Assembly: GCF_002214485.1 (NCBI RefSeq)
Contig: NZ_CP015102.1
Location: 992,001-1,056,000, forward strand
Source: Thermococcus pacificus
Lineage (GTDB): Archaea > Methanobacteriota_B > Thermococci > Thermococcales > Thermococcaceae
DNA length: 64,000 nucleotides
Reading direction: 5' to 3'
Positions within the stretch are counted from its first letter, which is position 1. Each line of letters opens with the position of its first letter. The notes under the pieces were generated by a model. It was not told the origin of the DNA. It searched no databases and was given only the letters and a program-made list of their open reading frames with translations. The position numbers were made by a program, and so were the translations under genes. Shown piece after piece: positions 60,873-64,000 of the stretch.

Positions 60873-61802
60873 TCACAGCTTCTTTATTTTTGCAACGAAG
60901 AAGCCGCTCGTCCCGTGCCTGTCGGGATAGAAGCGCCTCGCCTTCGCTATTTCTTCGCTCAGCTCGATTCCAAAGGGCCTAGTCAATGCAGGCTCTCCGT
61001 AGCGGAGCGGGAGCAGTTCTACATCGAAGTTATCGAGAACCCACTGGATCACGAACTCGTTCTCCTCCGGCTCGAGAGAGCAGGTGGAATAGACGAGGGT
61101 TCCACCCTTCCTGAGGACGCTCAGCCCCTTCTCAAGGAGCTTCATCTGGAGACCCTGGCAGAACTTAACGTCATCCATCGTTCTGTTGGCCTTCCTCTCC
61201 GGGTTCTTGTGTATCGTTCCGGAGCCAGTGCAGGGTGCGTCGAGAAGGATTTTGTCGAATTCCACGCCGAGTTCATCTATGTGGAGGGACGAGCTGTGGA
61301 TTAAGACGATGTTCGTAACGCCAAGGCGGGAAAGGTTGAGCCTCGTCTCCTTCAACCTCTCCTCCCCAACGTCGAAGGCGTAGATTATTCCCTCGTTCTC
61401 CATCAGCTGGGCGAGGTAGGAGGTTTTTCCTCCCGGCGCTGCCGCCATGTCGGCAACGGTCTCACCGGGCTTTGGTTCCAGAGCCACTGGGGGATACATC
61501 GAACTCGCTTCTTGGATGTAGAGGAGGCCGCTTAGGTATTCGGGCGTTGAGGTTATCGAGAAGGGCTCGCGCGTGAGGCAGAAGCCTTCCCTGGCCCAGG
61601 GGACGCGCCTGAACTGGAAGCCCTTCTTGTTGAGGAGCTTGGTGAGCTTTGGAACCTCTATCCTGAGCGTGTTTACGCGGAAGCACCTTGGCAGGGGCTT
61701 TTCCATGGCCTCGGCTATCGCTAGTGCCCTCTCACCCCAGAGCTCGTAATAGCGCTCCGCGAAGGTCTTGGAGTAGCCGAGGCTGAAGAGCTTTTCGAGC
61801 AT
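60873..61802 (-). CDS. RNA (cytosine-5)-methyltransferase, NOL1/NOP2/Sun family
   Basis: The 309-residue protein has the N-terminal RNA-binding extension of NSUN/RsmB enzymes (ALAIAEAMEKPLPRCFRVN), SAM motif I VADMAAAPGGKTSYLAQLM, motif IV LDAPCTGSG with Cys191, and motif VI STCSLEPEENE with nucleophile Cys241. It methylates C5 of cytosines in tRNA or rRNA; archaeal relatives such as Trm4/aTrm4 act on tRNA positions 48-52. The ATG at 61802 has no ribosome site, and the TATA box 24 bases upstream makes the transcript leaderless. Upstream lie four palindromes. It is convergent with the preceding gene, 2 bases apart. Confidence 0.88.
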   Translation of the reverse strand: MLEKLFSLGYSKTFAERYYELWGERALAIAEAMEKPLPRCFRVNTLRIEVPKLTKLLNKKGFQFRRVPWAREGFCLTREPFSITSTPEYLSGLLYIQEASSMYPPVALEPKPGETVADMAAAPGGKTSYLAQLMENEGIIYAFDVGEERLKETRLNLSRLGVTNIVLIHSSSLHIDELGVEFDKILLDAPCTGSGTIHKNPERKANRTMDDVKFCQGLQMKLLEKGLSVLRKGGTLVYSTCSLEPEENEFVIQWVLDNFDVELLPLRYGEPALTRPFGIELSEEIAKARRFYPDRHGTSGFFVAKIKKL

Positions 61803-61822
61803 GGTTGGGGTTTGGGGGAGGG

Positions 61823-61830
61823 GTTTAAAA
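61823..61830 (-). promoter_or_regulatory. TATA box of the m5C methyltransferase gene
   Basis: The reverse strand reads TTTTAAAC after AACC, centred near 61826. The start codon at 61800-61802 lies 24-25 bases downstream, the normal initiation distance, so translation starts at the mRNA end. Confidence 0.6.
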
Positions 61831-61841
61831 GGTTCTCCGTC

Positions 61842-61958
61842 TGTGAAAGTTCACTTTCACAAAAAGCCCGATTTATGAAAACCCGTTTTCATAAACTGCC
61901 ACTTTACGAAAGAGACCTTTCACAAACACGGGTACACCTATGAAAACAGGCTTTCGCA
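61842..61958. repeat. Array of four palindromes with about 32-base spacing
   Basis: Centres are at about 61851.5, 61883.5, 61914.5 and 61948.5 (spacing 32, 31, 34 bases, close to three helical turns). Arms: TGTGAAAGT/ACTTTCACA with gap TC (perfect, 9 bp), TTTATGAAAAC/GTTTTCATAAA with gap CC (perfect, 11 bp), TTTACGAAAG/CTTTCACAAA (two mismatches), and TATGAAAAC/GCTTTCGCA (three mismatches). Half-site consensus is about TRYGAAARN. It lies between the m5C methyltransferase start and the OTC stop, 15-130 bases upstream of the former's TATA box, and has no coding content. Cooperative regulator sites are likely; a hairpin function is less so because gaps are only 2-4 bases. Confidence 0.7.
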
Positions 61959-62001: not shown

Positions 62002-62949
62002 TCAGACCTTAATTCCACCCATAACCAGTGCCATGAGGGCCTTCTGGGCGTGGAGCCTGTTCTCGGCCTCGTCGAAGACAACGCTGTTCGGGCTGTCAAC
62101 GACATCATCCGTGACCTCTTCCCCGCGGTGGGCCGGGAGGCAGTGCATGAAGATGTAGTCTGGCTTGGCGTGCTTGACGAGATCCCTGTTGACCTGGAAG
62201 GGCATGAATATCTTTCTCCTCTCCTCGGCCTCGGCTTCCTGGCCCATGCTCGCCCAGACGTCGGTGTAAATGACGTCTGCATCTTTGACGGCCTTGACGG
62301 GGTCGTGGAGAAGCTCGAAGCTTCCGCCGCTCTCGGCCGCGTTCTGCTCCGCCCACTTGACGACCTTCGGGTCGGGTTCATAGCCTTCCGGCGTGGCGAC
62401 AACAACGTTAGCCCCAAGCTTGGTTCCGGCTATCATGAGGGAGTGTGCCACGTTGTTTCCGTCACCGACGTAGACGATTTTAAGACCAGCAATCCTGCCC
62501 TTCTTCTCGAGTATGGTCTGGTAGTCAGCGAGGGCCTGGCACGGGTGGGAGAAGTCGCTGAGACCGTTTATGACCGGAACGCTCGCGTACTTTGCGAGGT
62601 CCTCAACGTCCTTGTGGGCGTAAACCCTCGCCATTATCCCATCCACATAGCGGCTGAGAACCCTGGCGGTATCGGCTATCGTCTCACCGCGCCTGAGCTG
62701 AAGGTCCTGGGCGTTGAGGTAGAGGCCGTAGCCGCCGAGCTGATAAATGCCGACCTCGAAGGAAATCCTCGTCCTCGTCGAGGGCTTCTGGAATATCATG
62801 GCGAGGGTCTTGCCCTCAAGAACACGGTGCGGCTTGCCTATCTTGTTCCATATCTTCATCATCTCGGCCGTCTTGAGAATAGTTTCAATTTCTTCCCTTG
62901 TGAAGTCCTGAAGGCAGAGAACATCCCTTCCTGCGAGGCTAACCACCAT
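62002..62949 (-). CDS. argF: Ornithine carbamoyltransferase
   Basis: The enzyme joins carbamoyl phosphate and ornithine to form citrulline. The 315-residue protein matches the Thermococcales enzyme in length and has [12 protein letters not shown] (54-65, carbamoyl phosphate loop), [15 protein letters not shown] (ornithine site) and [10 protein letters not shown], including the catalytic cysteine. ATG 62949 follows GGTGATGCAC; ATG 62958 is less likely. A TATA box (GGTTATTAAATT on the reverse strand, centre 62983) gives a short leader. No other arginine gene is nearby. Confidence 0.96.
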
Positions 62950-62977
62950 GTGCATCACCGTCTAAAGCTGGGGGGCG

Positions 62978-63929: not shown

Positions 63930-64000
63930 ACCTATTTTCATAAATTTTTGGGGCAGAACACTCAAGACCAGGAAAAATACTTGGGTAACACACGTCCAAA
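63930..64000. other. Downstream region of thyX, no gene seen
   Basis: TTTTCATAAATTTTT just after the stop is T-rich and may terminate transcription; it also contains one copy of the half-site TTTTCATAAA found in the palindrome array. The remaining bases to the window end show no start codon with a ribosome site, no RNA gene and no repeat. Confidence 0.4.

What the first reader, a model, noticed from the sequence alone, without database searches (positions are those of the whole stretch)
61842..61958. Four phased palindromes upstream of an RNA m5C methyltransferase
Four inverted repeats with related half-sites (about TRYGAAARN) stand at 31-34-base steps, i.e. about three helical turns, so all would face one side of the DNA. 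Two are perfect (9 and 11 bp arms). The array begins just upstream of the TATA/BRE of a leaderless methyltransferase gene and continues to within about 45 bases of the argF stop. Known Thermococcales operators (TGM, Phr, SurR sites) do not match as far as I recall. A lone half-site TTTTCATAAA also follows thyX at about 63936. This could be a cooperative regulator array, a plasmid-style iteron set, or a phase-spaced architectural site.
Basis: seen in the sequence. Interest (0 to 1): 0.75.

Follow-up and report, generated by a model that had tools for sequence, protein, structure and literature searches.

The report
Orphaned operator array of lost ATPase
Four evenly spaced DNA palindromes next to an RNA-methylation gene turn out to be the control switch of a different gene, a candidate antiviral ATPase that this archaeon has lost, and related ATPase genes often carry their own differently worded version of the same switch.

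Summary
In detail: four dyads (TRYGAAA-N6-TTTCRYA) sit at 61842-61958, expected by chance 0.07 per window, and nowhere else in this genome. The ancestral form, seen in 32 of 61 genomes of the genus, is stricter: 3-5 copies of TRTGAAAG-N4-CTTTCAYA at exact 32-bp steps, essentially one array per genome. Its owner is not the methyltransferase. In all 15 genomes (4 genera, several unrelated loci) that encode one 439-aa AAA_14-DUF4143 ATPase subfamily (PADLOC candidate defence family PDC-S01), the array forms that gene's promoter: the TATA box lies in the last spacer and the last dyad ends 1-2 bp before the start codon. The window's genome lacks this ATPase, so its array is an orphan operator 39 bp upstream of the RsmB/F-like methyltransferase. 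A related layout is a family habit: across 21 DUF4143-ATPase subfamilies, repeats of subfamily-specific sequence tend to bracket the TATA box (p=1.3e-4 against other genes). Best mechanism (inferred): each ATPase binds its own dyads through its winged helix and represses itself. Orphan arrays at the methyltransferase promoter keep their consensus better than neutral drift predicts, so secondary use there is possible. Not iterons, not an RNA hairpin set.

The parts
61842..61861 (.). Dyad 1, TGTGAAAGTTCACTTTCACA (methyltransferase-proximal; corresponds to the site just upstream of the ATPase TATA box in genomes that keep the gene)
61872..61895 (.). Dyad 2, TTTATGAAAACCCGTTTTCATAAA (core 61874-61893)
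61905..61924 (.). Dyad 3, TACGAAAGAGACCTTTCACA (one outer position off the genus consensus)
61939..61958 (.). Dyad 4, TATGAAAACAGGCTTTCGCA (one outer position off the genus consensus; shifted to a 34-bp step)
61820..61835 (-). BRE/TATA of the methyltransferase gene (GAACCTTTTAAACC on the minus strand); the junction motif CACARACGRMGAACCTTTTAAACC marks the orphan-array allele in many species
60873..61802 (-). RsmB/F (Nop2/Sun)-type RNA m5C methyltransferase gene, now downstream of the orphan array
62002..62958 (-). argF (ornithine carbamoyltransferase), upstream neighbour; in the genus the array lies between argF and the methyltransferase where both are on one contig

Best explanation
The four dyads are the operator array of an AAA_14-DUF4143 ATPase gene (439 aa, PADLOC candidate defence family PDC-S01) that once stood between argF and the methyltransferase and has been lost from this genome. 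In the intact form, dyads of one sequence stand every 32 bp (three helical turns), the TATA box sits in the last spacer, and the last dyad covers the DNA between the TATA box and the start codon of a leaderless gene. That geometry means a protein filling the array would block TBP/TFB and RNA polymerase. The most likely reader is the ATPase itself, through the winged helix between its ATPase and PD-(D/E)xK-like parts: negative autoregulation, cooperative along one face of the DNA. SHOWN: array identity and geometry, association with this gene in 15 of 15 cases, absence of the gene here, subfamily-specific repeats at many sister genes, consensus conservation in orphan arrays. INFERRED: past presence and loss of the gene in this lineage, binding by the ATPase, repression, cooperativity. 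OPEN: whether the orphan array now serves the methyltransferase promoter.
For: Array in 32 of 61 genus genomes with 0 control hits, at 32-bp steps. All 15 members of the ATPase subfamily (74-100% identity, 4 genera, several loci) have the array directly upstream with the TATA in the last spacer. No homologue at E<=1e-30 in the window's genome; its only DUF4143 ATPase has different dyads. Degraded ATPase with degraded array in G042, and array remnant without the gene in G113. Single sites at about background outside arrays where listed, so no sign of a regulon. Sister subfamilies carry different repeats in a comparable place: medians above controls, p=1.3e-4, best scores up to 21 vs control maximum 10; two haloarchaeal homologues reach the test floor of p=0.016. 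Winged-helix signal at residues 220-302 (HTH_5, Csa3, CasR models).
Against: No binding or expression data. Most subfamily medians (15 of 21) do not exceed the control 95th percentile in the repeat test. Orphan arrays at the methyltransferase keep their consensus better than neutral expectation, which a pure relic should not, so either the loss is recent or repeated, alleles are exchanged, or something else uses the array. The winged-helix hits are weak, and the structure prediction failed (pLDDT 40).
Confidence: 0.77

Rival explanations
1. The array has been taken over as a working regulatory element of the methyltransferase gene: a host protein other than the lost ATPase binds it, and it is maintained by selection.
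For: In arrays next to the methyltransferase, strict consensus positions differ in 3 of 180 comparisons against 67 of 198 at centre and spacer positions. Ascertained by the promoter junction rather than by the dyad pattern, 14 of 21 genomes keep a perfect proximal dyad against about 11% expected under a rough neutral model. Arrays cut off from any gene are worse (0.84 vs 0.15 mismatches per site). Distance to the ATG is 38-40 bp in the measured cases.
Against: Several species with the same allele have lost dyads or the whole array (G003, G012, G048, G057, G025). No other gene in the own genome carries the site. The window's copy has drifted from the 32-bp register (34, 31, 32). Constraint could date from times when the ATPase was present or reflect allele exchange with ATPase-bearing strains.
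Confidence: 0.3
2. A widespread host regulator of the Lrp/feast-famine type (TGAAA half-sites, as recalled for FL11/LrpA) reads both the ATPase arrays and the orphan arrays.
For: Same TGAAA/TTTCA half-site as recalled for Pyrococcus FL11; Lrp-type octamers suit multiple phased sites.
Against: Half-site spacing is N6 here, N3 in the recalled FL11 site. No regulon was seen: single-site counts outside arrays are near control. Sister ATPase subfamilies carry unrelated repeat sequences in a similar place, which points to the ATPases as readers.
Confidence: 0.08
3. The dyads act as transcribed hairpins (small RNA or 3' UTR structure of argF).
For: Perfect inverted repeats in an intergenic region downstream of a gene on the same strand.
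Against: Outer positions 2 and 19 vary independently (61 Watson-Crick against 58 expected, with 33 mismatches of 120 sites), so there is no compensatory change. Dyads sit on both sides of the TATA box of the ATPase gene. No Rfam match reaches its gathering score; low-scoring hits only.
Confidence: 0.03
4. Plasmid-style iterons, a partition site or an architectural/chromosome-organising site.
For: Regular spacing, essentially one array per genome, fixed chromosomal neighbourhood in the genus.
Against: No match in 2.9 million viral contigs or in plasmids. In other genera the array sits at other loci, with the ATPase gene. About half of the genus lacks a detectable array.
Confidence: 0.03

Closest known systems
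PDC-S01 (PADLOC candidate defence ATPase; Pfam AAA_14 + DUF4143)
   Same: The gene that owns the array matches PDC-S01 at E=3e-34, and all 19 subfamily representatives scanned match. [quoted passage not shown]
   Different: I found no reported operator or regulation for these genes; only one paper in the library names DUF4143. In the window the gene itself is absent and only its operator array remains.
Autoregulated operators of repressors and toxin-antitoxin genes
   Same: Repeated dyads around the core promoter of a gene that encodes a protein with a DNA-binding domain; one gene, one operator sequence (general knowledge).
Tar (TK0271) operator TGGACA-N8-TGTCCA
   Same: Palindromic operator near the BRE/TATA in Thermococcus (PMC6737238).
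   Different: Different half-site, spacing and position; found at several operons rather than as one array per genome.
FL11/LrpA (feast/famine) sites of Pyrococcus (recalled from memory)
   Same: TGAAA/TTTCA half-sites.
   Different: N3 rather than N6 between half-sites; global regulator with many targets, whereas no regulon was found here.

Membership tests
Operator array of the 439-aa AAA_14-DUF4143 ATPase subfamily | TRTGAAA-N6-TTTCAYA dyads at 32-bp steps | tested here: met
   Window dyads 1 and 2 match exactly, 3 and 4 with one outer deviation each; steps 32, 31, 34
Operator array of the 439-aa AAA_14-DUF4143 ATPase subfamily | Located where the gene stands in relatives (between argF and the methyltransferase) | tested here: met
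Operator array of the 439-aa AAA_14-DUF4143 ATPase subfamily | Final dyad between TATA and the ATPase start codon, ATPase gene present | tested here: not met
   Gene, its TATA and the last dyad are missing in the window; no homologue at E<=1e-30 in the genome. Hence 'orphan remnant', not an intact member
Operator array of the 439-aa AAA_14-DUF4143 ATPase subfamily | Bound by the ATPase | not testable with these tools
   Needs gel shift, footprint or ChIP
PDC-S01 promoter with subfamily-specific repeats around the TATA box | Repeat similarity between both sides of the TATA above control genes | tested here: met
   21 subfamily medians vs 128 control genes, p=1.3e-4; 6 of 21 medians above the control 95th percentile
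PDC-S01 promoter with subfamily-specific repeats around the TATA box | Holds outside Thermococci | tested here: inconclusive
   Of 10 plasmid-borne homologues, 2 haloarchaeal ones and one Bacteroides reach p=0.016, the lowest value 60 mononucleotide shuffles can give; the other 7 do not, and the tests are uncorrected
FL11/LrpA operator | TGAAA-N3-TTTCA (recalled) | tested here: not met
   Spacing is N6 at all window dyads
Tar operator | TGGACA-N8-TGTCCA | tested here: not met
   Sequence differs
Plasmid iteron or origin | Same array on replicons, near a rep gene | tested here: not met
   No match in viral contigs or plasmids; neighbours are argF and the methyltransferase
Structured RNA element | Compensatory changes in the stems | tested here: not met
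   Positions 2/19, 8/13, 9/12 and 10/11 show no clear excess of Watson-Crick pairs over independence

The most novel reading that the evidence does not exclude
PDC-S01 ATPases, very widespread candidate antiviral genes, are sequence-specific DNA-binding proteins that each carry a private operator code at their own promoter. The phased array would be part of the switch that keeps the defence silent until infection, and orphan arrays left after gene loss are reused as promoter elements of neighbouring housekeeping genes such as the m5C methyltransferase.
Probability: 0.3. Interest if true: 0.8.

Novelty: new variant of a known kind. Interest (0 to 1): 0.62.

Why it matters
PDC-S01 is reported as the fourth most common defence across prokaryotes, with validation pending for most such candidates (PMC12988326). 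A conserved, subfamily-specific operator at its promoter gives a direct handle on what these ATPases bind and when they are switched on: each gene names its own predicted binding site. It also explains an otherwise puzzling phased palindrome array as the footprint of a lost gene, a type of relic that can mislead promoter annotation and can be used to trace gain and loss of such genes.

Tried and rejected
Methyltransferase-specific operator as the origin: rejected, because the array occurs at other loci with the ATPase. Other ATPases near argF (ATPase_2/DUF234 type, PDC-S27) as owners: the array is not tied to their start codons. Global regulon: single-site hits at about control frequency where listed; the match list was cut. 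Viral and plasmid origin of the array: none found. Structure of the ATPase: only two sequences could be used, pLDDT 40, so no fold search was run. Winged-helix conservation within the subfamily: only slightly above the protein average, so not used as evidence. A first dyad-pair score was too strict on arm length and was replaced by the bracket score.

Full report
OBSERVATION. Four dyads of the form TRYGAAA-N6-TTTCRYA stand at 61842-61861, 61874-61893, 61905-61924 and 61939-61958 (expected by chance 0.07 in the window). They lie between argF (62958-62002, minus) and an RsmB/F-type m5C methyltransferase (61802-60873, minus). Centres are 32, 31 and 34 bp apart. The own genome (1,785,673 bases, one contig) has no other exact match.

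CONSERVATION. A two-dyad pattern at a 32-bp step (up to 3 mismatches) hits 32 of 61 genomes of the genus and no control pattern; in the wider class it also hits four further genera. Apart from one 33-bp step in G004 and the window's own 31 and 34, the chained sites stand at exactly 32 bp; G058 carries an extra upstream dyad 28 bp away. Genomes hold 3-5 copies in one array, or 2 where the array is truncated, decayed or cut by a contig end. In the genus the arrays lie between argF and the methyltransferase where both are on the same contig. Several genomes have only about 70 bp between the two genes and no array, which shows what the unoccupied site looks like.

OWNER OF THE ARRAY. In genomes where extra genes lie between argF and the methyltransferase, the array often directly abuts one of them: a 439-aa protein with AAA_14 and DUF4143 domains. 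I call it F7. A genome-wide search finds this subfamily (74-100% identity) in 15 genomes of 4 genera. All 15 have the array immediately upstream, including genomes of other genera where gene and array sit at quite different chromosomal places. The arrangement is constant: dyads upstream, TATA box (CTTATAAG/CTTATAAA type) in the last 12-bp spacer, one more dyad, then the start codon 1-2 bp later. The gene must therefore be leaderless or nearly so, and the last dyad covers the promoter-to-start stretch. A degraded F7 in G042 stands next to a degraded array, and G113 has two imperfect dyads and no F7 at a locus where G103 and G104 have F7.

THE WINDOW IS AN ORPHAN. The window's genome has no F7 homologue at E<=1e-30. 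Its single DUF4143 ATPase (G000:C1, locus L206) belongs to another subfamily and has different dyads around its TATA box, GTTTTCTGCATAAAAC and GTTTTATGTATAAAAC, the second ending at the ATG. The window array corresponds to the upstream dyads of the F7 promoter; the F7 TATA, last dyad and gene are missing, and the array joins the methyltransferase's own BRE/TATA through a junction (CACARACGRMGAACCTTTTAAACC) shared by many species. The window's dyads 3 and 4 deviate by one outer base each and the register has slipped (34, 31), which is mild decay. That the gene was once present in this lineage is inferred from these comparisons.

A FAMILY HABIT. Upstream regions of 106 AAA_14-DUF4143 genes in 21 subfamilies (55% identity clusters) were compared with 128 other genes. 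The score asks whether the stretch upstream of the TATA region and the stretch next to the start codon contain the same repeat, direct or inverted. Subfamily medians exceed controls (Mann-Whitney p=1.3e-4; 6 of 21 above the control 95th percentile of 9; control maximum 10), and single members reach 13.5 to 21. Repeat sequences differ between subfamilies: TACTCATTAnnAATGAGTA, GGTACGGTATnnTGTACC, TTGGTAATnnnATTACCAA, TGGTAAAGTTGAGTTTACCA, TGAGAACTnATACTTCTCA and others. Most subfamily medians (15 of 21) do not pass that cut-off, so this is a tendency, not a rule. Among ten plasmid-borne homologues from other groups, two haloarchaeal ones (phased GTTGTGG...CCCACAAC-type dyads) and one Bacteroides reach p=0.016, the floor of a 60-shuffle mononucleotide test without correction; seven do not.

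READER. The simplest reading of one repeat sequence per ATPase subfamily is that the ATPase reads it. The protein has helix-turn-helix-like signal between the ATPase and the C-terminal part (HTH_5 E=8.7e-4, below Pfam's cut-off; Csa3 1.8e-4, below NCBIfam's cut-off; CasR 4e-6) and a PD-(D/E)xK-like motif seen by eye in the alignment. A structure prediction from two sequences was too poor to use. Binding and repression are therefore inferred, not shown.

IS THE ORPHAN STILL USED? Dyads carry 0.15 mismatches per site both with F7 and as orphans at the methyltransferase, and 0.84 where the array is cut off from a gene; this count is biased towards detectable sites. Between orphan arrays, strict consensus positions differ in 3 of 180 comparisons and centre plus spacer in 67 of 198 (p=3.5e-18); in the window's own group 10 of 156 against 53 of 150 (pairs within a group are not independent). 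Ascertained by the promoter junction instead, 14 of 21 genomes keep a perfect proximal dyad, against about 11% expected under a rough neutral estimate. Other genomes with the same junction have lost it (G003, G012, G048). This fits either reuse by the methyltransferase in some lineages, or repeated F7 loss and allele exchange; argF-plus-methyltransferase trees show the states scattered. I leave it open at about 0.3 for reuse.

ALTERNATIVES. No compensatory changes support an RNA stem. No sign of a regulon supports a global regulator (whose match list was cut). No plasmid or viral copy supports iterons.

KNOWN OR NEW. F7 matches the candidate defence family PDC-S01 (E=3e-34; all 19 subfamily representatives match). 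A 2026 survey calls PDC-S01 the fourth most common defence across prokaryotes, with experimental validation pending for most such candidates (PMC12988326). Searches of the open-access library found one paper naming DUF4143 and no report of an operator for these genes; subscription papers are not covered. Autoregulated dyad operators as such are well known; phased arrays at PDC-S01 promoters, and their survival as orphans, appear to be new.

LIMITS.

Noticed in passing
L206:797-846 (own genome, G000:C1 near 1402865): The only DUF4143 ATPase of the window's genome has its own pair of dyads (GTTTTCTGCATAAAAC and GTTTTATGTATAAAAC) on either side of its TATA box, the second ending at the ATG.
   Followed up: partly
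L106, L108, L093 downstream of the arrays (about L106:6034-6130): In G036, G043 and G055 the array is followed by a decayed copy of the methyltransferase promoter and 5' end, while an intact methyltransferase gene is found elsewhere (behind a DUF4932 lipoprotein gene in G036 and G055, on another contig in G043): the insertion seems to have duplicated or split the 5' end.
   Followed up: partly
L076, L095, L100, L105: The argF-methyltransferase gap, and a second locus in another genus, are hotspots that collect several AAA_14-DUF4143 and ATPase_2-DUF234 genes (PDC-S01 and PDC-S27) in tandem, with family-less ORFs (about 306 aa, no Pfam hit) between some of them.
   Followed up: no
L179 / G086:C1:1702214-1702807: A broken F7 copy with an internal stop (71% identity over the C-terminal half) in another genus, with no array found by the two-dyad search.
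   Followed up: no
window 63935-63944: Lone TTTTCATAAA behind thyX: one unpaired half-site, most likely chance.
   Followed up: yes
L274:1357-1445 and L282:685-765: Haloarchaeal plasmid-borne PDC-S01 genes carry phased GTTGTGG...CCCACAAC-type dyads, about three copies at 33-34 bp in Haloferax larsenii.
   Followed up: partly
alignment A2, C-terminal part: Subfamilies with an N-terminal NPWW motif keep an ExK in the PD-(D/E)xK-like region (e.g. IEVKYGK), whereas most others read IQV-S/T, suggesting loss of nuclease activity in the latter.
   Followed up: no
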